This document shows, in pieces, positions 6,077 through 62,640 of a stretch of 64,000 nucleotides of DNA. Every line of letters starts with the position of its first letter. Within the stretch, counting starts at the first letter, position 1. The position numbers and the translations under genes were made by a program. Source of the stretch: Stentor roeselii (lineage: Eukaryota > Ciliophora > Heterotrichea > Heterotrichida > Stentoridae); NCBI GenBank assembly GCA_006503475.1, contig RSEH01000035.1:144830-208829 (forward strand), read 5' to 3'. The notes under the pieces are model-generated. The model made no database searches. It worked only from the letters and a program-made list of their open reading frames with translations, and was not told where the DNA came from.

Positions 6077-9000
6077 TTATTCTTTACTTAATAAAAAAGT
6101 TCTAATTTTTTTGTTTATGGTCACAAAGTTCAACTCTTTATTAAACACGAAGTTGAATCTAGCCTCCATATTCAAAAGTAACTCACGAGTGGCATCACTG
6201 ACGTTAATTCTTCCAGGAGACCCATTGCTTTCCATCTGATTAGCAACAAGGACATCAGGTCCATAAATATCGTACCTCACGACATCAGTGCCGACAATTC
6301 CAGCAATCATTGAACCTGAGTGAATTCCAATTCTGATATTCAAATTAACAGCGAGTTCTAAATTGACTTCTTTCATCACTTCTATCATGGCTAAAGCCAT
6401 TTGAACAACGTTTAAACACTCAAGTCCAGGGTTTCTTTGACTAAAGTCCAGATTTCCAAGTACCACGTAACAGTCTCCTATTGTATGCACCTTGTAAACG
6501 TTGTGCCTCAGGCACAACCTGTCAAATCGACTGAAAATTTCAGATAAAACATTAACGATTTCCTTTGGAGACTTCTTGGAACTCCATTCAGTGAACCCGA
6601 CGATGTCAGAGTAAAGAAGAGTAACATTATGTACTTTTTCTGTTAAAGTCTTATGATTTTTCATATTTTCCACTACATGTGCAGGCATCATCTGTTTTAA
6701 AAGGTCTTCAGTTTTAAGTAGGTCTTTTTCAGTAGCTGTTTTTAACTGGGTGTAGTTGACGATCTGCGTTTCTCTGTTGAAAATCGCGGAAGTGTTAACA
6801 AAGTAAAAAACAGTCAAGACTATCAAGTCGAATACTCGGTTGTAAGTCACTTTTCGAGAGGACTGGATGTAGAGGTTTGGAAAGATCAGGACTGGGAATA
6901 AGAAGATTAGGGACCTGGAAGAAAAACCTGAACAGTAGATGAGGATCAGGTAGATGAACATGTGGTCTAATATTTCTAAACTTTCTTCACCTACCTTTTC
7001 TTTCATGCGGATCTCTTCGATACTTGACGTGCTTAGCAGGAAAAAAACCAGGAACAGGATAATTAAAGAGTAAAAACGCCGAAGGTATACCTTTTTAAAT
7101 ACCAGGATCAATAAAACTATTAAACAGAAACAACAGCATCGCATGATAAATGATAATTCATCTCCCTTCTCTCCGAAATGCATTCCATAGATTGACCTTG
7201 AAATTTCTACTAAATAGTTGACGAGACATGTGAGAAAAATTGGAGTTTGAATGTCTTTGTTGCTTTCCATTTTATTTATACGGATTTTCTTGTCTTTTTC
7301 ACTTTCTAGGACCTGAAAACTGCAACATTCGCTGTTTTTGTAAAATAATGTCGCGGTACGGAAATTCATTTCTAATAAACTCAAATTTTCATTTGCGAGT
7401 TTTGTCTCGTAATGATAGCCTGTACCTGTTATTGCACTTGCGGTTTTGTTGGAAATTGCATCGTCGAAAGTACCTGTTGGCTCGTTGAACCCGGGGATTA
7501 CTACAAAAGTGTTCATTTCGCCTTTCCCTTTAGCGAAAATAGTACTTGATGTGAATTTTAAGTTTGTAACGTCGGGAATCATGTGGAAAGTATTTGAGGA
7601 GATTTGTATTGCGTTTTTTGATTTTAATGTTGAACACATTCTGGATGCTGTGTTCACTGTATCTCCAACAAGTGAAAACTGCGGCTTATGATACCCAACA
7701 ACTCCCGCTGTAACCGGACCTGAATTGATTCCAATTTTCACCTCAAGTTTTCTTTTATTCTTCATTAAAAACCTTTCAGCTTCTTCAATCACTGCCAGTG
7801 AAAAGCTGATACTTCTCTTGGTATGATGGATCATTTTCACTGACCCATCCATTTCAGACTCACTGTCTTTAAGTCCTGAGCAAGCCATGTACGTCTTTCC
7901 AACAGTTTCGATTTTGCTGATTCCGTGAATTTTGCAGAGAGTGTCAAGCTTCTGAAAGAAACTATCCAAAAATGATATCAACTCGCTTGGGGTGTACTCT
8001 GCGCAGATCATGTCGAAGTTGTCGATGTCGCAAAAAATGATTGAAACTGTTCCTTGGTCTTCTGCTATGTATCTTACTCCATCCTTGACTCTTTTTCTAA
8101 CAAACTCTGGTAACATAACACTTAAAATCCTTTGAGTTTTTTCATAATTTTGTTCCTGTATCTTAATAAGTTTATATTCTTCCCTATAAGTAGTTTCAAT
8201 AGCTCTGGCTAAGAATGCAGAACTAACATTAATAATAACAATTTTCGTCAAAATTTCAGATATTTTTAAGTTATTATAAACTTCTGGGCTGCATAGATAC
8301 TCGACTATCAAGTACTCTACAATTCCCAAAGCATTCAAAACTGAAACTTTCAAGAAGTCCACATTAAAAAAGATGTAAATGATTGAAGGCATTATTCCTG
8401 TCAACATTAAAGAAATATTCTTCGACATAATTTCGATGACAAGCTTGAACAGAATTCCTACAAAAATGAAAAAAAGTATAACTTTAGCATAGTAAGTCTT
8501 AAAAAAAGAGGTAAACGCTATTAAAGACAGCAAAATCATCAAAATTGAAAATACAGCATTCACTATCAGCAGTTCCAATGATTTCATGCTTATCAGCGGG
8601 TCAATCACTGCCCAGAGACAGTTCAAAATCGTGATGACAGAGATGAGAACTCTCATTACTTTGATATTTGATTGGATAAAGTTAAGTTGATAAACGTTTT
8701 CAATGTACGAAATCATGAATTTCAAAGAATACTTGTTAGTTTCGTATAAGTCTTTCACTATTTTAATTGATTTTATCTGGTGTTTGTAGATTGTGGTTAG
8801 TTTGCTTTGCTTTGCCTTGACGAAAACTTTGTTTTTTAGATTAATTAAGCTGAAAATCAATAGGTGGGCTACTGTTTTTAAGACAAGGGTTGTAAGAGGT
8901 ACCATCGCTAGTTGAACTAAGCATAATGGGGATGATAGTAAATGATTGTAAATTCCATGGTAATCGCTTATTGTGCTTATTTCGTATAAAACAGAGAATA

Positions 9001-12000
9001 GGATCAAGGCTGATAATGAAATCATCAATGATGAGATTAAAAGTGGAGTAAAAATTGAGACATTTCTCATCACTTCTACCCAAAATGTTAGAATTATTGT
9101 TATAAAAAGCCTGAAAAATAAAATTTCTGAATTGTCGGTCTTACCTGAAGCATTTAAAATTATGTCATCGTTGAAAATTAGCAGGAATACAAATATGGTT
9201 AAACAGTCAATGAAAGTATTCAGTAAAAGGATGAAAACACTCATAGTGTTTAAATCACTAAACCAAAAAACTGAAAAATTTTGATGAATGAAAGATTTAC
9301 GATCCTCTAAGTATTCTAGAATCATAACAAGTAAAGGAAGAGTAACCCAAGAGTTCAAGCATATTTTGAAACAAATGCTATAAAAAGAATTTAGAGAATA
9401 TTCACATCTGGTCATATAAGCAAAAATCACAGTGCAAGCTAGAATGTTTTTGTAAAGAAATAAATGAAAAAACATTGAGATCTTCTTGGAAATTGATGGT
9501 CCAGTAGAATGAATTAGTTCTTTCAGGTCATGAAAACTAGAAAATTTGATATCATGATAACTTAGTTCCTCTGATAATGACTTTTTCATGTAAAATCCAA
9601 TATCTGCTGACTGCATCATCGGGATATCTTCTAACCTGCTTCCCACGGCGCCTACAAAAGGCTTAAATGACAAGTTTTCCTTCATCATCTGAATGATATC
9701 TTGCTTATCTTTATTGGTAAGTTTATAAAAACACACTGATTTCGCGGAAAAAAGCAAGCAAATCAATAGTTTCACAGTATTTGGGTTTGATAGTGCAGTA
9801 CGGAAACTAACCCGATCAACAAAAACAGAAAACTCATTCTTTAATACACTAGCAGGTTCCTCAATTTTCTGCATAACTCTTTCCTCTAAAGCACGAATAT
9901 TCGAGTTGAAATGGTCCTCATAAATCAAATTATAACTATTGATACTTCTGCTAACCTTAACAGTAGAATTAATCTCCGAAGCAACATCAAGATGCACCGA
10001 GAACTTATTCTCAAAAACATTCAAATCATCTAACTCCCCACAAGACTCCTCCAAATAAACATTCTTCAAAATAGCATCTGCAAGGACCCTAAGACAAAGT
10101 GAATAACTTTCCACCCTCCTCATAAAAATAATAGAAGACCCATCATCAATAATTCCACTTTTCAAGCAAGCTGAAAAAGTCGCAGTTTTTTTATCAGAAC
10201 TTGCAACCCAGAGCCTAGTTCCTGTTTTTTTAATAGAATGAACTGCCTGAACAGTTTCAGGTTTAACCGAGTCTTCAACTCCACAAATTCCAAGAAATTT
10301 GCAGCTTTTTTCAAGTTTTTGAAAAACTTTTTCCAGTCGTTTTTCTTTTTGTTCAGGAAAACTTTCAGCATTATTAATTTCTTCCTTGATCCAGGAAATT
10401 TCTTTGGAATTAAGATTTTTTTTTCCAAGGACAAGAAAAGCGAGTCCTTTTATTTTAAATTTTTCGATTTTTGGAAAAATTTGGTCTTTAATGTGAGGGT
10501 CGATTTCAAGTTTATTTAAAAGTTTTTTTTCTGTGCCTCGAACGTAAAGAGTCCAGTTTTCGTCATTGTTTTCGATGATTGTTCTGATGTTTTTGCCTTT
10601 ATTGGTTAGAATAATGCTGCAGGCGATGATTTGATCTGCGATGTTTAAGATGACTGAATGAGGGTTTAACGAGTAGACATAAGCACCGATGTCTTTACCG
10701 AAAGAGTTTATTGCTTGGTCATCGTTGGACCTGGTAAGTGATTTTTTTGAGTTGGTTTTTAAGTTGCATAAAAGAAGACATTTAAAGAACTCCTGCGTTT
10801 TTTCATTGGAAAGGTCTTCGTGTAGGTCAGTGAAGTCCTGGTCAATGTCGTGAAATAGTGAAAAGTCTGAATTTGCTTGGTCCAAGTCACTGACTGTTAA
10901 GTAATTCACAGATTTTCTGTAAAGTTTCGAATAAACTATACTTAAAGTCACTTCATACTTGTTCTCAGTGATTGCTCCAGTCGAACTAGTCACAATGTAC
11001 TTCAAGGCTTTTAAGTTTTCTAAAATGTCCATGTTGTTAATTGAACAGCTTTTTATTGTTAGTTTGTAGAAAAGTAAAATAAACTCGTAAAGGATAAACA
11101 TGCTTATTGGGATCATACTGGAAAATAATATCAAACATTCTCTGAAAGTTAAGAAAAAACTTGTCACTGATGAGTGGCTGTTGGAATTCGTTGACATCAC
11201 CGAGAGAGATGTTGTTAAGAACAGGTAAAGAAGTATGTAAAAAAATAAAAAGTTTTTTAATTTCACTTGTAAAAAATTTCGCTTTTTTGATTGCTTCTGG
11301 ATACTGGAAAATGCTTTCGTTTCGTATCCTGCGTAGAGGATTATACCGATTATGAATGAAACGCCTGATAATCGAGAAGACATCAGGAGTAAATTTTTGA
11401 ATCTTAAATCTATGTACTTTGGATTTTTCATTAGACTCATCTTTCCGCTGAATTCAGAGTAATTGGGTGAGGGATCAGTAAAATAAATCTTCCCAATCAT
11501 TTTTTCTTTAATACTCTCCTCAACCCCTCCTTTAAAAATCTGCTGAGTTTCAAAAACACTCATCTTCCTATCAAATTCAGTTCTAGCAGTGACTTCTCCC
11601 AAGTCACAACAAAACCCACCATCAATACTAGAGCTAAAAACCACAAGTAAGTCAGCCGGGCATTTCTGTCCTTCTAAAACTTTAACAAAGTTTCCAACAA
11701 CCAACTTTTCACTTTTGGTCAATTCAAAGTTTTTCCCGTTCCAAACATCGACAAGTGCTTCATTGATTTTTTTCTCTTCACGAAGTTCAGCCCTCAAAAT
11801 AATGACGTTTTTTAATAAATTGATAAAGATCAGGACCAAAAAAGGCAGAAGAATCGACCCGAAATAGTCCTTTTTGTCCATATCAAGCAACTCAAGAATC
11901 AAAATAAATAAAAAAAACACAGGGGCAGGACTCAGAAACTGAAAAAAAATGCTTCTTGGGACCAGGTCAAGCCATGTGAACCGAGTAAAGTTAATTTTGT

Positions 12001-12070
12001 TTGCAGGATAAGGTGAAAAAAGTGAAGGTATCGATGAAAGTCTGATATTTCTTGAGAAGCTTTCAGACAT
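6077..12070 (-). CDS. P4-ATPase-like/guanylyl cyclase fusion (1997 aa), alveolate type
   Basis: Single long exon. The N-terminal half matches P4 (lipid flippase-type) ATPases in layout: two early membrane hairpins, an actuator-like segment, a large cytosolic loop and later membrane spans. The phosphorylation site that should read DKTGT reads SSTGAITEN (about residue 365), so the acceptor Asp is missing; the hinge GDGxND is also changed (VGSRLEDIPMMQ). After more membrane helices comes cyclase domain C1 (about 1335-1500; FCDIDNF, ETVGKTYMA, SLVGDTVNTASRM), then six or so more helices, then C2 (about 1810-1985; SDIVGFT, HTIGDCYV, YDIYGPDVLVANQM). C1 keeps the transition-state Asn/Arg and a Glu expected to read guanine but has Lys for the second metal Asp. 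C2 keeps both metal Asp residues but lacks the Asn/Arg. Together they make one active site, in reverse order to mammalian adenylyl cyclase, as known for Paramecium and Tetrahymena enzymes. Product cGMP; membrane bound. Confidence 0.95.
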   Translation of the reverse strand: MSESFSRNIRLSSIPSLFSPYPANKINFTRFTWLDLVPRSIFFQFLSPAPVFFLFILILELLDMDKKDYFGSILLPFLVLIFINLLKNVIILRAELREEKKINEALVDVWNGKNFELTKSEKLVVGNFVKVLEGQKCPADLLVVFSSSIDGGFCCDLGEVTARTEFDRKMSVFETQQIFKGGVEESIKEKMIGKIYFTDPSPNYSEFSGKMSLMKNPKYIDLRFKNLLLMSSRLSGVSFIIGIILYAGYETKAFSSIQKQSKKRNFLQVKLKNFLFFYILLYLFLTTSLSVMSTNSNSHSSVTSFFLTFRECLILFSSMIPISMFILYEFILLFYKLTIKSCSINNMDILENLKALKYIVTSSTGAITENKYEVTLSIVYSKLYRKSVNYLTVSDLDQANSDFSLFHDIDQDFTDLHEDLSNEKTQEFFKCLLLCNLKTNSKKSLTRSNDDQAINSFGKDIGAYVYSLNPHSVILNIADQIIACSIILTNKGKNIRTIIENNDENWTLYVRGTEKKLLNKLEIDPHIKDQIFPKIEKFKIKGLAFLVLGKKNLNSKEISWIKEEINNAESFPEQKEKRLEKVFQKLEKSCKFLGICGVEDSVKPETVQAVHSIKKTGTRLWVASSDKKTATFSACLKSGIIDDGSSIIFMRRVESYSLCLRVLADAILKNVYLEESCGELDDLNVFENKFSVHLDVASEINSTVKVSRSINSYNLIYEDHFNSNIRALEERVMQKIEEPASVLKNEFSVFVDRVSFRTALSNPNTVKLLICLLFSAKSVCFYKLTNKDKQDIIQMMKENLSFKPFVGAVGSRLEDIPMMQSADIGFYMKKSLSEELSYHDIKFSSFHDLKELIHSTGPSISKKISMFFHLFLYKNILACTVIFAYMTRCEYSLNSFYSICFKICLNSWVTLPLLVMILEYLEDRKSFIHQNFSVFWFSDLNTMSVFILLLNTFIDCLTIFVFLLIFNDDIILNASGKTDNSEILFFRLFITIILTFWVEVMRNVSIFTPLLISSLMISLSALILFSVLYEISTISDYHGIYNHLLSSPLCLVQLAMVPLTTLVLKTVAHLLIFSLINLKNKVFVKAKQSKLTTIYKHQIKSIKIVKDLYETNKYSLKFMISYIENVYQLNFIQSNIKVMRVLISVITILNCLWAVIDPLISMKSLELLIVNAVFSILMILLSLIAFTSFFKTYYAKVILFFIFVGILFKLVIEIMSKNISLMLTGIMPSIIYIFFNVDFLKVSVLNALGIVEYLIVEYLCSPEVYNNLKISEILTKIVIINVSSAFLARAIETTYREEYKLIKIQEQNYEKTQRILSVMLPEFVRKRVKDGVRYIAEDQGTVSIIFCDIDNFDMICAEYTPSELISFLDSFFQKLDTLCKIHGISKIETVGKTYMACSGLKDSESEMDGSVKMIHHTKRSISFSLAVIEEAERFLMKNKRKLEVKIGINSGPVTAGVVGYHKPQFSLVGDTVNTASRMCSTLKSKNAIQISSNTFHMIPDVTNLKFTSSTIFAKGKGEMNTFVVIPGFNEPTGTFDDAISNKTASAITGTGYHYETKLANENLSLLEMNFRTATLFYKNSECCSFQVLESEKDKKIRINKMESNKDIQTPIFLTCLVNYLVEISRSIYGMHFGEKGDELSFIMRCCCFCLIVLLILVFKKVYLRRFYSLIILFLVFFLLSTSSIEEIRMKEKVGEESLEILDHMFIYLILIYCSGFSSRSLIFLFPVLIFPNLYIQSSRKVTYNRVFDLIVLTVFYFVNTSAIFNRETQIVNYTQLKTATEKDLLKTEDLLKQMMPAHVVENMKNHKTLTEKVHNVTLLYSDIVGFTEWSSKKSPKEIVNVLSEIFSRFDRLCLRHNVYKVHTIGDCYVVLGNLDFSQRNPGLECLNVVQMALAMIEVMKEVNLELAVNLNIRIGIHSGSMIAGIVGTDVVRYDIYGPDVLVANQMESNGSPGRINVSDATRELLLNMEARFNFVFNKELNFVTINKKIRTFLLSKE

Positions 12071-51857: not shown

Positions 51858-54800
51858 ATGGGAAATAACCAAAAAAAATTTCAAATGAAATTTTCGAAAA
51901 CTCTCGAAAATATCTCCCTAGAGCAAAAGATTAATGATAACTATTCGATCTATTCAACTCTCAAAACCCAAAACTCCTATCTCCCTTTTACTTGGCCTTT
52001 GAACAAAACAATAATCAAGAAAAATGCAATCGAAAATATTTCATTAGCTCCTTATAGCGAATATATCGGATACTCAAGAGGTACTAAAGTAGTGATAGTA
52101 ATTTTATCCAATACAAGGAAAGTTTTCTCAAAATACAACCATCAAAAGCTAGTGACAACTTTATCATTCTCCCCGAATGGCAGATTAATTGCTTCAGGAT
52201 CTGAAGATAAATTAATAAAACTTTGGGATTTTCAAAATAAAGAAGAACATATCAACAACTTAGAACATCCTTCATCAGTTTACTCTTTGTCATTTTCCCC
52301 TAATAAAAAATTTTTAGCTTCTGGGTGCAATCTTGGGTTATTGATAGTCTGGGATTTGAATTCACTCAATCAACATTTTTCACTTGAAGGCCATTATCTT
52401 AAGATTACCTGTTTGTCGTTTTCTCATGATGGAGCCATCATCGCGACTGGGTCTGCAGACTTGACTGTTAAAATTTGGAATTTTTTTGATAGACAAGAAG
52501 AGTTTAAATTTGTTGGACATAAAACTGAAGTTACTTGCTTGGGCTTTTCATTTGATAGTTGTTTTCTGGCTTCTGTTTCTAATGATAAAATCATGAAAGT
52601 TTGGGTTCTTGAAGGAAAGTTTTATGAGTTAAATATTGGAAATCCGATAAATGTCAATTCTTTGGCATTTTCACCGAAGGAATTTTTTATTGCTGCTGCA
52701 TGTGAGGACGCAAGAATACGTATTTGGAATGTTCAGGAAATGAGAAAAGTAGCTTCTTTTGAAGGGCATACTTCATCAATAACAAGTATTTGTTACTCAC
52801 CTGATGGTAATTCATTAGCAACAAGTTCTAAAGATAATTCAATAAAAATCTGGAATATTGAGCATACAAGAGATGAAATGGCTATCCCTCCAAATTCATA
52901 TACCATCCAATCAATTTCATTTTCAAATGATGGTAATTACATCGCAGCAGGATTATGTTTATCAGGTATTAAAGTATGGAGTATGTTAACCAAAGAAGAA
53001 TTGACTTTTTTTAGACATATATATAAAGTTAATTGTCTTGCTTTCTCACCAGATTCTTTATACATTGTTTCAGGCTCAGAAGACAAAACGATTAAAGTCT
53101 GGAACATTCAAACACAAATAGAAGAATTTTCACTCAACGGGCACCTTTTTTCAGTAAACTGTCTCTGCTTTACGCTTGATGGAACATTACTTGTGACTGG
53201 ATCATCTGATTTTCAAGTGAAAATATGGGATTTTATTGAAAGAAAAGAAAAGTTCTTATTAAATGGACACAGTTCTTTTGTCACTTCTTTGGCTTTGAGG
53301 TCTGATGACTTGTTTTTAGTTAGTGGCTCAATTGATAGCATAGTTAAAGTTTGGAATTTGATAGAAATGAAAGAAGAGTTATACTTTTATGTGAATTACT
53401 CAGTATATTCTCTAGCATATTTGAGGGGCGACAATCATATAGCGGTAGGCACTTTAAGTTATGTTATATATATTTACAATCTTCAAGAACGAGCTATTGA
53501 ATTTACACTATCAGGACATACAGGTTCAATAAATTGCCTTGTGTTTTTACCTGAAGATAACCTCTTAGTCTCAGGATCAGAAGACCAAAGAATCATCATT
53601 TGGAATTTGAAAGAAAGAAGAGAAGAAATTTCAATTTTAAGACATTCACTTCCAGTAAAATGCATGGCTGTTTCACCAACGAGCGATCTAATCGCTACTG
53701 GTTCAGAAGAGTTACCTCTTAAAGTTTGGAACATAAAAACTAGATCAGAAGCTTTCACCTTAATAGGCAATTCATGTTGGGGAAACGTATTGCCATACTC
53801 ACCTAACGGCAGGTTCATGATAACATACTTCGAAGGCTATAGAATCTTTGACTTTCAACAACAAATTGAAATTATCCATATTCCAAATGCATCAGCTTTA
53901 ACAAGTCGCTTTACTTTTTCCAATGATGAGAAATATTTCGCGATATCCTCAGGTATTAAAATGATCAAAATTTGGAATTTAGAACAAAATGTTCAAGAAA
54001 TTATTTTAACAAGTCCAAAGTCTGAAACTATCAATCTTTGTTTCTCGAATGATGGAGAGCTTCTCGCTGCTGGCTTCAAAAATAATACCGTAATGATCTG
54101 GGATATACAAAATCGGTTGAATCCAACGACTATTAAAAATATTGATTTTTTGGATTGCTTTGTTTTTTCTCCGACTGATAAGTTTTTGATTTTATGTCAG
54201 AAGTCAATTATTAATATCATTAGACTTGAAACTGGTAAAACAGAATTTTCAATAAAAATAAGCACAATTTATGAAATTAATCATATGAAATTCTCAAATA
54301 ACCTCAGGTTTTTAATATTGTTCACTGATAATCGATGCTACCAGGTCAACTTTATAGATAAACTTGGTTTTCTGCTTGATATTTTTATTGCTAGCTGCAT
54401 TGAGAAAGAAACAAAATTAAAAGTTATTTACAAATATGCAGAGGCTGGTCTTTTTTTCTTTGAATGTAATTCAGAACACTCACAATGGTTAAAAACTCTT
54501 AATTTAAAGTACAGAGATATTTTATCTGAATCGATTATTCATTTTTCAGATGCGAAATCTCTTAAGCTTTTAAAGAATATAAAAAAATTCACAAATATTG
54601 GAATTCTTCCTGAATTTTTCAATGAAAAAGCGATGAAAATCCTTCATAATCATTTTCTTAAAAAAGGGCAGGTATTAACAGATACTCAAGTAGACTATCA
54701 AGACCTTCTCATTATGTTTTATCATGATAAGCTAAAAATTTTAGAAGACCAAAAATTAGCTGATTGTTACTTTAATCAAATAAAGAAAATTAGACTGTTT

Positions 54801-55712
54801 AAAGAGAAACAAGAGAATTTTGTTCAGATTTTGACCTCTTTTATTTCGAAAAAAAAAATAATATTCGAACAGATCTACGATTGGCAAAAAATTAACTCAA
54901 TTTCCGAAAAATTCTATAAAGTCAGTTATTTCGAAGCTAATTACTTTTTTAACCAAGTTCTAATAAAAAGGTATTCATTTAGTGTTACTATTTTAGAAGT
55001 TTTTAAGAAAAACATTCAGATAGAACAGGAAAAAGAGGCTAAGTGCTTTGAACTATTTGATGTGTTTAAAAGTGAGTCTAATTGTTTCTGTGATTACTTG
55101 GGATGTATTGATACTCAGAGTGGGTTTTACTTGGTCATTAAAAATCATGGAAAGAGACTCGATACTTTCATAAAATATTTTAAACAAGAAGGACTGAAAA
55201 TCCCTGAATTCAATATTACAACTATTGTTCTATCTTTACTCAAATCTTTCTCTTTAATAATAAGCAAAAACATCTTGCATCGAAATATTGGCTCTGAGTC
55301 TTTCCTTATAGATGACAACTACAACATATTCATTATAAACTTTCTTTATTCAGCGATTAAATCAGAAGATGGTACTTTTAATCCAGAAAACAACTATTTG
55401 CCTCAAAAATCAGGGGATTATCAAGCTCCTGAAGAATCTAACTTAAGTGTTGAATTAGACCTTGAAAAATGTGATGTTTTTTCATTAGGTATGGTAATTC
55501 TAGAACTGATGACATTAGAAAATATACAATTATTGAGAGAAAATATTGACCATTTTCTAAGACTAATGAAAAATAGTAATATTTTATGGCTTGAAAAGCT
55601 ACTCAAAATCATGTTGGATCAAAATCCTGATAAACGGATGAGATTTCCAGAATTAATTAATTTTATCGAGCATGATATTTCTGAGACTATGTCGAATTCT
55701 ATGGCTTATTGA
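51858..55712 (+). CDS. WD40 array fused to C-terminal pseudokinase (1284 aa)
   Basis: Single exon. The N-terminus MGNNQKKFQ may be myristoylated. From about residue 60 to 780 I count about 16 WD40 units by their closing strands (IKLWDFQ, LIVWDLN, VKIWNFF, IRIWNVQ, IKVWNIQ, VKIWDFI and others), enough for two propellers. After a helical linker, residues about 1010-1275 form a kinase-like domain: VLIKRY (possible ATP lysine), ILHRNIGSESFLI in place of HRDxKxxN (about 1138), INFLYS in place of DFG (about 1158), but intact YQAPEE and DVFSLGMVILEL. Loss of the HRD and DFG aspartates argues for a pseudokinase. Likely a signalling scaffold; no known partner. It heads the WD40-rich group. Confidence 0.85.
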   Translation: MGNNQKKFQMKFSKTLENISLEQKINDNYSIYSTLKTQNSYLPFTWPLNKTIIKKNAIENISLAPYSEYIGYSRGTKVVIVILSNTRKVFSKYNHQKLVTTLSFSPNGRLIASGSEDKLIKLWDFQNKEEHINNLEHPSSVYSLSFSPNKKFLASGCNLGLLIVWDLNSLNQHFSLEGHYLKITCLSFSHDGAIIATGSADLTVKIWNFFDRQEEFKFVGHKTEVTCLGFSFDSCFLASVSNDKIMKVWVLEGKFYELNIGNPINVNSLAFSPKEFFIAAACEDARIRIWNVQEMRKVASFEGHTSSITSICYSPDGNSLATSSKDNSIKIWNIEHTRDEMAIPPNSYTIQSISFSNDGNYIAAGLCLSGIKVWSMLTKEELTFFRHIYKVNCLAFSPDSLYIVSGSEDKTIKVWNIQTQIEEFSLNGHLFSVNCLCFTLDGTLLVTGSSDFQVKIWDFIERKEKFLLNGHSSFVTSLALRSDDLFLVSGSIDSIVKVWNLIEMKEELYFYVNYSVYSLAYLRGDNHIAVGTLSYVIYIYNLQERAIEFTLSGHTGSINCLVFLPEDNLLVSGSEDQRIIIWNLKERREEISILRHSLPVKCMAVSPTSDLIATGSEELPLKVWNIKTRSEAFTLIGNSCWGNVLPYSPNGRFMITYFEGYRIFDFQQQIEIIHIPNASALTSRFTFSNDEKYFAISSGIKMIKIWNLEQNVQEIILTSPKSETINLCFSNDGELLAAGFKNNTVMIWDIQNRLNPTTIKNIDFLDCFVFSPTDKFLILCQKSIINIIRLETGKTEFSIKISTIYEINHMKFSNNLRFLILFTDNRCYQVNFIDKLGFLLDIFIASCIEKETKLKVIYKYAEAGLFFFECNSEHSQWLKTLNLKYRDILSESIIHFSDAKSLKLLKNIKKFTNIGILPEFFNEKAMKILHNHFLKKGQVLTDTQVDYQDLLIMFYHDKLKILEDQKLADCYFNQIKKIRLFKEKQENFVQILTSFISKKKIIFEQIYDWQKINSISEKFYKVSYFEANYFFNQVLIKRYSFSVTILEVFKKNIQIEQEKEAKCFELFDVFKSESNCFCDYLGCIDTQSGFYLVIKNHGKRLDTFIKYFKQEGLKIPEFNITTIVLSLLKSFSLIISKNILHRNIGSESFLIDDNYNIFIINFLYSAIKSEDGTFNPENNYLPQKSGDYQAPEESNLSVELDLEKCDVFSLGMVILELMTLENIQLLRENIDHFLRLMKNSNILWLEKLLKIMLDQNPDKRMRFPELINFIEHDISETMSNSMAY

Positions 55713-56351: not shown

Positions 56352-57995
56352 CTAATTTGCTAAATCTAACTTCCAGATAATAAACGACATAAATTGAATC
56401 AAAATCATATACTTTTGATTTTTTGTTATAAGATACACATCTTCAAGCTTGCCCTTATGATAAAGATGTTGAATCTTATCAGCATAAAGTTGCCAAATAG
56501 TAATTTTATTTCCATCTTCATTTCCAACAATCAAAGAATCATCTCCAGCTACAAATATCTGAGTAATTTTATTTTCACATTTTAATACTCTTGTCATTTC
56601 CATTGTATTTCTATTCCACATTTTAATGAAGAAGTCTCCTCCAAAGCTAGCAAGTAACTCTTCATTTTGACAAAAGTTCAAACAACTGACACAACCTTCA
56701 TGTGCATTCATTATTGATACAAATGATTGATCATCAATTTTCCAAATATATATTGAATGATCGTGCCCTCCAGTAGCTAAAAAATTCCTAGATTTCGAAA
56801 GAGCAATTGAAGAAATTTCATCAAGATGGCCATCAAGTAGGCTTTTAGCACATCCATCATCAATATTGAGAGTTTGAATATCATTATTATATCCTAGGAT
56901 CATTAAGTGATTATGCTCTAGTGTTTGAACATAAATACATTTAATTTTCAGATCTATTTTCTTGGAACAACTTCTAGTAAGGAGGTCCCATATTATCAAG
57001 TAATGATCTTGACCTCCTGAAACAATTTTCGAAGAACTTGAAATAAATGCAAGAGTTTCTATTTGAGATTCATGAAGTTCAAAATTGAAGAAATTTTTTA
57101 AATCAGAAAGTAAATAAACCGTGATTATTTTATTCTTAAATGCTAATCCAATATAGTTATTGTCTTGACTTAATGCAAAGCAAGTAGTTTTATTATATTG
57201 AAGATCAATTTCTATAGTATAGCAGCATTCTATTATATCAAAGACTTTCAATTTTTTTTCATGGTGCCGTGAACAAAAATAAATTTTGTTGCATTCTGAA
57301 ATTTCAATGAAACTTAAGTTAATACCACAGTTCATTTCACCAATATATTCGAAATTATCTGCTGAGAATAATTTTATTCTATTATATTGGCCTGCAATCG
57401 CTAGGAATGCATCATTTATTTTAATATTTGTCAGAAATCCTATTTCTGCTAAACTTTTAATTTCTATTTCGTTTTTATTGTAAAACCATATTCCAAGAGT
57501 GGAATCATTAGAATAGGCTATGTATTCATATTTGGTAGAAAGGGCTATGCTAAATTTGTAATGAAGGTTGTTGTTGGTATGTCTTAAAATTTTGAATTTC
57601 TTTATTTCTTTGAGTTTTGAGTTTTTCGAATAGTCCCAGATAATGATTTCGTTTTCTTCATTGAGGGTTGCAACGATTTTTGAAATTTGGTTGAATGCGA
57701 TACTTAAGATTGTACTTGATGATGAAACTATTGAAGTATTGATCAGTTTTGAGACTAATTGAGTAAGTATATTTAACTTGATTGAATAGGGTTTCGCCCA
57801 AAAACTTATAAATTCAAGGGCTTGAGTTTTGAATAACTTTAAGAATGAAAAGATATCTATGAATCCTTTGATCAATTCTGAAGTGTTTACACGGATTTTT
57901 CTAAGATAAGTTCTACTATGATTATCACATAATCTCTGTTGAATACAAGAACATCCAAATGTATAAGGATTTGTGCAATAGTAGCACGTATTCAT
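56352..57995 (-). CDS. WD40-repeat protein with N-terminal Cys/His motif (547 aa)
   Basis: The first 30 residues (MNTCYYCTNPYTFGCSCIQQ then RLCDNH) hold a C-x2-C-x6-C-x-C...C-x2-H cluster like a small B-box-type zinc site. A helical part (about 30-85) is followed by about nine WD40-like units (about 90-547; e.g. NEIIIWDYS, HYLIIWDLL, HSIYIWKID, FFIKMWNRN). No catalytic domain. Start ATG in the context tatataaATG. It is convergent with the WD40-pseudokinase gene and appears to be part of the same local gene group, though the repeats are more divergent. Confidence 0.8.
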   Translation of the reverse strand: MNTCYYCTNPYTFGCSCIQQRLCDNHSRTYLRKIRVNTSELIKGFIDIFSFLKLFKTQALEFISFWAKPYSIKLNILTQLVSKLINTSIVSSSSTILSIAFNQISKIVATLNEENEIIIWDYSKNSKLKEIKKFKILRHTNNNLHYKFSIALSTKYEYIAYSNDSTLGIWFYNKNEIEIKSLAEIGFLTNIKINDAFLAIAGQYNRIKLFSADNFEYIGEMNCGINLSFIEISECNKIYFCSRHHEKKLKVFDIIECCYTIEIDLQYNKTTCFALSQDNNYIGLAFKNKIITVYLLSDLKNFFNFELHESQIETLAFISSSSKIVSGGQDHYLIIWDLLTRSCSKKIDLKIKCIYVQTLEHNHLMILGYNNDIQTLNIDDGCAKSLLDGHLDEISSIALSKSRNFLATGGHDHSIYIWKIDDQSFVSIMNAHEGCVSCLNFCQNEELLASFGGDFFIKMWNRNTMEMTRVLKCENKITQIFVAGDDSLIVGNEDGNKITIWQLYADKIQHLYHKGKLEDVYLITKNQKYMILIQFMSFIIWKLDLAN

Positions 57996-60008: not shown

Positions 60009-62640
60009 ATGAATCAATATTTTAGCAAAGCTAAAATAAGAAACCAAAGAATACAGTCTTCCAAAGTAAACTCAATTGCATCTAGTGCAGATTAAGAATA
60101 TTTTGCAAGTGCTTCTGATGACAAAAAAGTTATAATCAGGAATGTAAATAATTGGTCAACCTATACTCTTTTGAAGACACTAAAGAAGTGACCTCTGTAG
60201 ACTTCACCCCAAATGAAAAACAAGTAGTTAGTGCGTCAAATGATAGCACTGTGAAATTATTTGATATAAAAACTAAGAAATTAGAGCACAATTACGAAGT
60301 CCATATCTTTGAGGTTAACTCGGCGACCTTCAGTTCAAATGGAAAACATTTGGTGAGTTGCTCAAACGACAAGTTCATCAAAGTCTGGGATGTTGATGAA
60401 AAGAGAAATATGCAGACTTCGAAGACATCAAGATAGGGCCAAATTTGCTTTTTTCAGCCCAGACTAGGAGGTGATTGTCAGTGCCTCAACTAATAAAACA
60501 ATTAAACTATGAGACATAAAGCAAGATCCAGAAGATTTTGATTTAACTGGACATACTTTGGGGTAAATTCAATATCTTACAGTCTGAACGGGAAATTCAT
60601 AGCCAGTGGGGCAGGTGATGGCACTATAAAGGTTTGGAACGTTACTGAAAAGCGAGAAGAGTTTCAATTGCAAACTAGCTCACCTTTTATTAATTCAGTT
60701 GCTTTTCATAAAGACAACGAAATTATAGCAAGTGCAGGATCAGATGGCAGAGTAATACTCTGGACTCTATGAATTCAGTAATATTCAGTCCTGATGGAAA
60801 AATTCTTGCGAGTGGTTCTGAAGACAAAAAAATTATTATTTGGAACATAATGTCGAAGAGAGAAGAATTTAAGCTTGAGGGCCATTTTGCAGAAGTTAAA
60901 GTTGCCTTCACTCCAGACAGTAAACTTCTTGTTAGTGGGTCTTCTGATAAAACGATAAAAGTCTGGAGCCTTGTAGATAAAAAAGAAGAGTTTGAATTGA
61001 AGGGTCATAGTAAAATTGTAAAGTCTGTTGGTGTCAGTCCTGATGGCAAATTTATTGGTAGTGGATCAGTTGATTGTAGAGTAATTGTGTGGAATATTAA
61101 AGAAAAATCAAGCTTTTGTTCTTAGAGGTCATACCTGGACTGTTACTTCAGTCGCATTCAGTCAGAATTCAAAGTTAATTGCAAGTGCTTCATAGGATAG
61201 ATCTACAAGAGTTTGGTTTATAGAAAATAAGTCAGTGGAAAATTTGTTTGAAGAACATTCAAGTTATGTTAATTCTGTCGTCTTCGGTCTTGATAGAAAA
61301 TTAATCGTTACGGCTTCAAGTGATACAACTATAAAAGCACGAAGCATTACAGAAGAAAAGACAAACAAGATAAGTAGTGAAAATAAAAAACTTTCAAAGA
61401 ATTAAATTTCATAGAGCATTTATCAACTAATCAATCAGTAGCTTTCAGTCCAGATAGTAGATATTTTGCAAGTGCCTCCATGGAAAGTGTTAAGCTATAT
61501 AATTTCAGTGAAAAAAAAGAAATATATCAAATGTTTTGCAACCTCAGTTGCCTTTAGTTCAAACAGTAAGCATCTAGCTATCGGACTATTTGACTCCCAG
61601 ATAAAATTTTTCGATCTGAATGAAAATCGAGAGGTAGCAACTTTAAAAGGACACTCAAGTGTGTAAATTCAGTAAGTTTCAGTCAAGATTGTAAAAGACT
61701 GGCAAGTGGCTCATCGGACCTGTCAATTAAAATTTGAGATCTGCTTTCTATGAAGGAGAAATTTACTTTTACTGGGCACAGTTCAATCGTCAAGTAAGTA
61801 TCTTTCAAATCTGATGGCAAGTACTTAGTTAGCGGGTCACTAGACTGCAAAATCAAAGTCTGGAGTCTTGAATTAAAACAAAAATCTTTCACACTTGAAG
61901 GTCATTCTGCTGGAATTACTTCAATAGATATTACCCCAAATGGAGCACTGATTCCAAGTGGCTCTATGGATGAAGATGTGAAAATTTGGGATTTGCCAAA
62001 ACATACATTAAACATACTTTTCGAGGGCATTCAACAAGTATCTTAGCTCTTTCGTTTTGCCCGAGTGGCAAATTTATTTCAAGTGGTTCTTGGAATCAAA
62101 TAAAATTTTGGAATATAGATGAAAAACGACAAGAGTTTCAATTTATAAATTTGAAGGGGCAATTAATACTATTGCATTCAGTCCGAATGGAAATATATTA
62201 GCAACTGTATCACAGAATAAATCGTAAAATTTTTGAATATATTAGAGAACAAAAAACAAAACCAAATCTTAAAGAAAATATTTGCAGTAAAAACAGTTGC
62301 CTATAGTCCAGATAAACGCTTAATTGCATAGGGATCAAATGACAGGACCATTAGAGTTTATAATACTGAAACTCAAAGGAAGAATCAATTCTTAAAGGAC
62401 ATCGATGGAGATTAATCATTATTCTTCAACTCCATGATTGTAACGGATGGAGTAAGCTGCTCAATCATCTTCATCAGAAAGGATCTAGCTTTGATGGAAC
62501 AGCAAAAAATCAAGAGCAGAGATCATGTTGGAAGTCTTCCAAAGCCAAAAATTTCTAAGAAGGCCTCTAAAAAAGTGACCAAAGCAGCAAAGAAAGAAGA
62601 TAAATCAGAAAAAAGAGCGCAAAGATAAAATCCAAATTCA
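60009..62640 (+). pseudogene. Decayed WD40-repeat gene with Lys-rich tail
   Basis: Across all three plus frames the sequence encodes recognisable WD40 units (e.g. STVKLFDIK, KFIKVWDVD, GTIKVWNVT, KKIIIWNIM, KTIKVWSLV, CKIKVWSLE, EDVKIWDLP), at least a dozen. The reading frame is broken by at least six frameshifts (about 60,150; 60,420; 60,570; 60,770; 61,115; 61,660) and several in-frame stops, two of them TGA where Trp is expected (about 60,510 and 61,735). No 15-nt introns fit the breaks. A Lys-rich tail (KASKKVTKAAKKEDKSEK, about 62,560-62,628) follows. It is most likely a pseudogene of the local WD40 family, starting near the ATG at 60,009. Programmed frameshifting is unlikely given the number of breaks. 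Confidence 0.85.

What the first reader, a model, noticed from the sequence alone, without database searches (positions are those of the whole stretch)
51858..55712. WD40 double propeller fused to a pseudokinase
About 16 WD40 units are joined to a C-terminal kinase fold that keeps APE and the DVFSLGMVILEL helix but has HRN for HRD and NFL for DFG. I do not know a described family with this order. With the neighbouring WD40 gene and WD40 pseudogene it suggests an expanding, fast-evolving sensor or scaffold family. Long arrays of similar repeats fused to signalling modules occur in fungal and bacterial recognition proteins, but here such a role is only a hypothesis.
Basis: partly seen in the sequence, partly recalled or inferred. 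Interest (0 to 1): 0.7.

Follow-up and report, generated by a model that had tools for sequence, protein, structure and literature searches.

The report
Repeat-sensor proteins fused to dead kinases
In what looks like a single-celled ciliate, this gene belongs to a large family of proteins that join a long array of repeats, in some members very similar to each other, to a kinase-shaped domain that lacks the residues a kinase needs; the arrangement recalls recognition proteins of fungi, but its function is untested.

Summary
Window 51858-55712 encodes 1284 aa: a WD40 array, a predicted helical domain (841-993) and a confidently predicted kinase fold (996-1283). It is not a decayed single copy. 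In 30 aligned family tails of the genome (the window's own and 29 paralogues) the HRD Asp, the catalytic-loop Asn and the DFG Gly are each present in 0 of 30, the APE Glu in 30 of 30. The one relative outside the family that I read keeps HxD...N. Eight paralogues carry 126-bp WD40 units, 77-91% identical within seven measured genes. They turn over much as in fungal HET-D/HET-E receptors, and the four fastest codons (35, 19, 17, 16) include three of the four sites reported as selected in Podospora. The window copy has old, divergent repeats. Most likely this is a lineage-specific recognition or scaffold family with a WD40 sensor and a pseudokinase output. The recognition role is inferred: the same positions also vary in a WD40-only gene, and a local selection test is weak.

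The parts
51858..55712 (+). WD40-helical-pseudokinase gene, 1284 aa, single open frame
51858..52082 (+). N-terminus (res 1-75): starts MGNNQKK (Gly-2, myristoylation-like, by eye); by eye shares the motif LEQKI..NYSIYS...FTWPL with paralogues (ELQKKIYKYY..YS.Y...YSWPM)
   Evidence: the signal was not tested
52101..54377 (+). WD40 array (res 82-840): 17 unit matches to residue 777, then weaker blade-like sequence; divergent repeats in this copy
54378..54836 (+). helical domain (res 841-993), 7 predicted helices; most of it is shared with kinase-less paralogues
54843..55706 (+). pseudokinase domain (res 996-1283)
54966..54968 (+). beta-3 Lys 1037 (VLIK); Lys in 26 of 28 family tails with data
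   Evidence: position counted by hand
55035..55037 (+). alpha-C Glu 1060 (EKEAKC); Glu in 28 of 29 family tails with data
   Evidence: position counted by hand
55278..55286 (+). HRN in place of HRD (res 1141-1143); Asp in 0 of 30 family tails
55338..55346 (+). NFL in place of DFG (res 1161-1163); Gly in 0 of 30 family tails
55425..55433 (+). APE (res 1190-1192); Glu in 30 of 30 family tails
55473..55508 (+). alpha-F DVFSLGMVILEL (res 1206-1217)
56352..57995 (-). neighbouring WD40 gene, 547 aa, Cys-rich N-terminus; no kinase match among the 25 of 34 families printed
60040..62430 (+). broken WD40 array (51, 57 and 71 stops in the three frames over 2.8 kb), up to 49.5% identical to paralogue L045 over 109 aa; no match of the family tail at this place in the genome search

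Best explanation
A lineage-specific, multi-copy family of intracellular scaffold/recognition proteins. The WD40 propellers bind a partner with their top face; in several members very similar 126-bp units are exchanged, so that binding surfaces diversify. The helical domain couples this to a C-terminal pseudokinase, which should not transfer phosphate and would signal allosterically, by docking a partner or by changing its exposure when the WD40 array is occupied. Shown: architecture, predicted kinase fold, family-wide loss of catalytic residues with purifying selection on the tail, unit turnover, and excess change at top-face positions relative to the global synonymous rate. Inferred: that the arrays recognise variable partners, that the pseudokinase is the output, and that the window copy, with old fixed repeats, binds a constant partner.
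For: Kinase fold. Census of 30 family tails, window included: HRD Asp 0/30, catalytic-loop Asn 0/30 (Ser 28), DFG Gly 0/30, but beta-3 Lys 26/28, alpha-C Glu 28/29, APE Glu 30/30, alpha-I Arg 29/30. Tail constraint: pN/pS 0.46 among 9 close paralogues; 0.47 for the kinase part of window vs L039, its most conserved part. Repeats: within-gene nucleotide identity 0.77-0.91 by gene (7 genes, printed before its script stopped). 64 units of 8 genes: within-gene 0.840 vs between-gene 0.811 (difference 0.0284; largest of 2000 label shuffles 0.0105); same-index units of two paralogue pairs no closer than other units (0.841 vs 0.836; 0.817 vs 0.815); 56 distinct 4-residue combinations. Per-codon pN over global pS: 35=2.71, 19=1.81, 17=1.52, 16=1.49, bootstrap intervals above 1; the other 38 codons together pN 0.110 against a global pS of 0.229. 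Podospora sites 7, 9, 25, 27 fall, by an offset of +10 that I set from the WD40 consensus, on 17, 19, 35, 37, ranks 3, 2, 1 and 5 of 42. On 42 disjoint pairs from 85 units these four give 1.53 (1.27-1.86). In the window-L039 pair positions equivalent to 16, 17, 19 and 35 are 32% identical against 46% elsewhere in the array.
Against: The window copy lacks homogenised repeats. In a WD40-only gene of the same genome (C314, 11 units) positions 35, 16, 22, 17, 4, 12 and 19 are the fastest, ratio up to 1.43 at pS 0.50, so variability there is partly a general WD40 property. Within the four Podospora codons the nonsynonymous excess over local expectation is not significant (N 114.4, S 25.6, P 0.38; P 0.025 for the set 16, 17, 19, 35, chosen after the fact), and codon 17 alone drops to 0.95. 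In one search codons 12, 18, 37 and 38 also lie above 1 with intervals that include 1. 31 of 404 tail codons exceed 1.5, so single codons are noisy. Only 27 of 64 units have their closest match in their own gene. No binding partner, expression, polymorphism or phenotype is known. Arrays may be mis-assembled.
Confidence: 0.5

Rival explanations
1. Structural scaffold family: WD40-pseudokinase proteins assemble cellular structures with constant partners, and similar repeats reflect only recent duplication and gene conversion, with top-face residues relaxed rather than selected.
For: Top-face positions vary also in the WD40-only gene C314; local selection test weak; the window copy and L039 align over 1280 residues end to end.
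Against: Nonsynonymous change at codons 16, 19 and 35 exceeds the global synonymous rate in both analyses; units lack positional orthology in the two paralogue pairs tested.
Confidence: 0.3
2. Cell-death or immune effector: the pseudokinase with the preceding helical domain is a switch-and-executioner module like MLKL, triggered by WD40 recognition.
Against: MLKL is tied with ordinary kinases, so the match is at the level of the fold; the helical domain was not searched alone; five loci have the array and most of the helical domain without a pseudokinase.
Confidence: 0.1
3. Degenerating family: catalytic loss and repeat decay by drift, with no shared function.
For: Several copies are truncated or broken: one match with 9 in-frame stops (C124), and short open frames at C118, C413, the right end of C92 and the left end of C257.
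Against: Tail pN/pS 0.46-0.47; beta-3 Lys, alpha-C Glu, APE and Arg kept; of the 11 long paralogue frames that I listed, 9 open with ATG right after a stop codon, one at codon 4 and one at codon 10, and each reaches the tail.
Confidence: 0.05

Closest known systems
Fungal HNWD NLRs (HET-D, HET-E, HET-R of Podospora anserina)
   Same: 42-aa/126-bp WD40 units of high similarity, unit turnover in concert, variability at the top-face positions (offset +10 to the sites 7, 9, 25, 27 of PMC1805685), multi-gene family with broken copies.
   Different: No NACHT or HET domain seen (among the 25 of 58 Pfam families printed for the window protein; tail alone gives only kinase); the kinase-like domain is C-terminal and the array comes first; probably a ciliate, not a fungus.
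MLKL (helical domain plus pseudokinase)
   Different: No WD40 in MLKL (recalled); the fold match is tied with active kinases; no evidence of membrane action here.
VPS15/PIK3R4, LRRK2 and bacterial PkwA-type WD40 kinases (all recalled, no call)
   Same: A kinase or pseudokinase and WD40 repeats in one chain (recalled).
   Different: In those the kinase precedes the WD40 repeats (recalled); here it follows, with a helical domain between.
Kinase-like 530-630 aa genes of the same genome (one read, L063)
   Same: Relatives of the tail outside the WD40 family; kinase-like C-terminus.
   Different: L063 has no WD40 match at E 0.01 and keeps HND...N and DFD.

Membership tests
Protein kinase superfamily (fold) | bilobal kinase fold | tested here: met
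Active protein kinase | catalytic Asp of HRD, Asn of the catalytic loop, DFG | tested here: not met
   0 of 30 with the HRD Asp, 0 of 30 with the Asn, 0 of 30 with the DFG Gly
Pseudokinase | kinase fold with catalytic residues lost in a conserved family | tested here: met
Pseudokinase | no phosphotransfer; ATP binding or not | not testable with these tools
   beta-3 Lys mostly kept; the glycine loop looks absent by eye
Fungal HNWD NLR | NACHT/NB domain | tested here: inconclusive
   none among the 25 best of 58 Pfam families printed for the window protein; tail alone gives only kinase
Fungal HNWD NLR | high internal conservation of WD40 repeats (over 85% identity over at least 100 aa in PMC4986451; over 80% in PMC12222747) | tested here: inconclusive
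   paralogue L045 is borderline (consecutive units mean 0.85 aa, range 0.81-0.90, n=7; nt mean 0.906); other paralogues 0.40-0.79 aa; window gene 0.36, below either limit
Fungal HNWD NLR | diversifying selection at top-face sites | tested here: inconclusive
   excess over the global synonymous rate, but local test P 0.38 and a similar ranking in a WD40-only gene
MLKL-like effector | four-helix bundle plus brace before the pseudokinase | tested here: inconclusive
   7 helices predicted; helical domain not searched alone

The most novel reading that the evidence does not exclude
A protist (probably heterotrich ciliate) immune or self/non-self recognition system: dozens of WD40-pseudokinase receptors whose sensor units are exchanged and diversified as in fungal HET-E, evolved independently and using a dead kinase, instead of a NACHT-driven effector, as output.
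Probability: 0.28. Interest if true: 0.85.

Novelty: new variant of a known kind. Interest (0 to 1): 0.62.

Why it matters
Recalled knowledge: few recognition systems are known in free-living protists. A family that combines exchanged WD40 units, top-face variability and a uniformly dead kinase domain would be a candidate for one, with a built-in test (strain polymorphism at defined codons). It would also show the HET-E mode of receptor evolution outside fungi and outside NLRs, and give a pseudokinase family of at least 30 aligned members in one genome for studying how dead kinases signal.

Tried and rejected
Simple decay of this copy: rejected. Subtelomeric family: suggestive only. Of 30 family tails (window included), 15 lie within 10 kb of a contig end (7.7 expected), 20 within 15 kb (10.1 expected) and 25 within 25 kb (14.7 expected); of 8 ordinary kinases used as a small control, 1 lies within 15 kb. 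21 of 30 tails point towards the nearest end (P 0.04), and of 18 contigs with a WD40 hit starting within 6 kb of base 1, 16 have the array's 3' side facing that end (P 0.001, list typed by hand from the 150 best hits). But arrays of similar units break assemblies, some contigs end inside arrays, and an exact run of three CCCTAA was not found, so I do not claim it. Prokaryote relatives: none confirmed (one peptide pattern). Full-length model of paralogue L045: failed, pLDDT 44.1. A structure search of the helical domain alone was not made.

Literature: searches listed no paper that I could recognise as describing this family; only listings were seen, most subscription papers and preprints are not held, so this is not proof of absence. 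PMC9882060 version 1 (Stentor mRNA) is listed as holding the words WD40 and pseudokinase, but the version held has neither, so that passage was not seen. Papers of which passages were seen: PMC4986451, PMC12222747, PMC1805685, PMC12881547, PMC9815663. All others: search listings only.

Left out: of 103 scored matches only 30 tails were aligned, and only one of the 530-630 aa relatives was read. In some searches units were used: the 70 less the first unit of six arrays. itself had left out units that are not 42 residues long and also, by no fixed rule, four that are (two of L046, one each of L053 and L056; compare). The 85 units were gathered afresh by a pattern from loci L039-L062. The C314 control used the 11 units that fit a pattern. 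Of 8 array loci without a tail match that I fetched, five are short forms, two run off the contig (C119 right end, C287) and one is the WD40-only gene C314.

Full report

Not a decayed copy. The tail (residues 880-1284) was searched against its own genome: 103 scored matches, the best non-self at 53% identity. I aligned 30 tails, the window's own and 29 paralogues, and counted motifs: HRD Asp 0 of 30; catalytic-loop Asn 0 of 30 (Ser in 28); DFG Gly 0 of 30, its Asp kept in 19, Asn in 7, Glu in 4; beta-3 Lys 26 of 28; alpha-C Glu 28 of 29; APE Glu 30 of 30; alpha-F Asp 25 of 30; alpha-I Arg 29 of 30. The tail is under purifying selection: pN/pS 0.46 among nine close paralogues, and in the pair window-L039 the kinase part is the most conserved (55% identity, pN/pS 0.47, synonymous change near saturation). 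The one relative outside the WD40 family that I read (L063) keeps HND...N and DFD, so catalysis was probably lost once, in the ancestor of the WD40 family (inference from one outside gene).

The repeats of the paralogues. Of eleven paralogous long frames that I listed, nine open with ATG directly after a stop codon, one at codon 4 and one at codon 10. Eight genes (L044-L048, L053, L054, L056) carry 42-aa units, spaced by 126 bp for most of the array (L048 was not among the frames). Pairwise nucleotide identity within a gene averages 0.77-0.91 in the seven genes printed before its script stopped. In 64 units, within-gene identity exceeds between-gene identity (0.840 vs 0.811; the difference, 0.0284, exceeds the largest of 2000 label shuffles, 0.0105), while units at the same index of two paralogues are no closer than units at other indices (0.841 vs 0.836 for L045-L053; 0.817 vs 0.815 for L044-L047), which points to unit turnover rather than positional inheritance. 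27 of 64 units have their closest match in their own gene, so exchange or recent ancestry between genes is also likely. The units show 56 different residue combinations at positions 16, 17, 19 and 35; Podospora showed 55 in 69 units at its four sites. Only L045 comes near the limit used for fungal high internal conservation (PMC4986451).

Selection. Over 274 within-gene pairs the nonsynonymous proportion divided by the global synonymous proportion is 2.71, 1.81, 1.52 and 1.49 at codons 35, 19, 17 and 16, with bootstrap intervals above 1; codons 37 (1.22), 12 (1.15), 38 (1.10) and 18 (1.08) have intervals that include 1; the 38 codons other than the first four together have pN 0.110 against a global pS of 0.229. 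Paoletti et al. 2007 (PMC1805685, passages) found selection at codons 7, 9, 25 and 27, each pair around a conserved site. With an offset of +10, which I set from the WD40 consensus, these are 17, 19, 35 and 37, ranks 3, 2, 1 and 5 of 42 here. On 42 disjoint pairs from 85 units the four give 1.53 (1.27-1.86), but codon 17 alone falls to 0.95 and the within-codon test is not significant (P 0.38); the set 16, 17, 19, 35, chosen after looking, gives P 0.025. A WD40-only gene (C314, 11 units) has 35, 16, 22, 17, 4, 12, 19 as its fastest codons, with a maximum of 1.43 at pS 0.50, so part of the pattern is what WD40 top faces generally do. I therefore call diversifying selection likely, not shown.

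The window copy and the short forms. In the window gene three consecutive pairs of units average 36% identity, and it aligns end to end with L039 (1280 aligned residues, 45% identity); positions equivalent to 16, 17, 19 and 35 are 32% identical (n=56) against 46% (n=608) for the rest of the array. Its repeats are old and fixed. Of eight array loci without a tail match that I fetched, five (C127, C441 left end, C517, C281, C161) carry the similar units and most of the helical domain and then stop at nearly the same place without a kinase; two run off the contig; one is the WD40-only gene. So the family has long and short forms.

Organism. 15-base GTA...AG candidate introns, a P4-ATPase/guanylate-cyclase fusion at 6077-12070 and long frames under the standard stop codons suggest a heterotrich ciliate with the standard code. 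This is an inference; the meaning of these marks is recalled, and in the crude intron scan non-canonical motifs of other lengths also passed.

How it may work. The WD40 array binds; the helical domain couples; the pseudokinase, keeping the Lys-Glu pair and the C-lobe core but not the catalytic residues, serves as an allosteric switch or docking module. Architecture and loss of catalytic residues are shown; the sensing role and the output are inferred. Some members begin MG (window gene, L039, L040 and L051 from their first Met), which might allow membrane anchoring (untested).

Known and new. Fungal HNWD receptors use the same kind of unit array (PMC12222747, PMC4986451, PMC1805685, passages), but have NACHT and HET domains, which were not seen here among the families printed. 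Kinase domains are listed among the N-terminal domains of fungal NLRs (PMC9815663, passages). The order WD40-helical-pseudokinase was not found in the searches named in Tried and rejected. I rate it a new variant of a known kind.

Noticed in passing
6077-12070 (-): 1997-aa fusion of phospholipid P-type ATPase parts and two guanylate cyclase stretches, an arrangement recalled from ciliates and apicomplexans.
   Followed up: no
56352-57995 (-): WD40 protein with a Cys/His-rich N-terminus that may bind zinc (by eye); no kinase match among the 25 of 34 families printed.
   Followed up: no
60040-62430 (+): Broken WD40 array related to the repeats of the family, followed by Lys-rich sequence instead of a kinase tail.
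   Followed up: partly
L059 (C127), L061 (C441 left end), L065 (C517), L066 (C281), L067 (C161): Short forms: WD40 array plus most of the helical domain, ending at almost the same place without the pseudokinase.
   Followed up: partly
contig ends of the genome: WD40 arrays cluster at contig ends and point outward more often than expected; either a subtelomeric location or assembly breaks.
   Followed up: partly
L063 and other 530-630 aa frames: A second group of kinase-like genes; the one read has DFD in place of DFG and keeps HND...N.
   Followed up: partly
L064 (C314:15000-18000): WD40-only gene with a long array (open frame of 999 aa in the stretch fetched).
   Followed up: partly
22288 and 27173 (+), and one on the minus strand: 15-base GTA...AG candidate introns.
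   Followed up: partly
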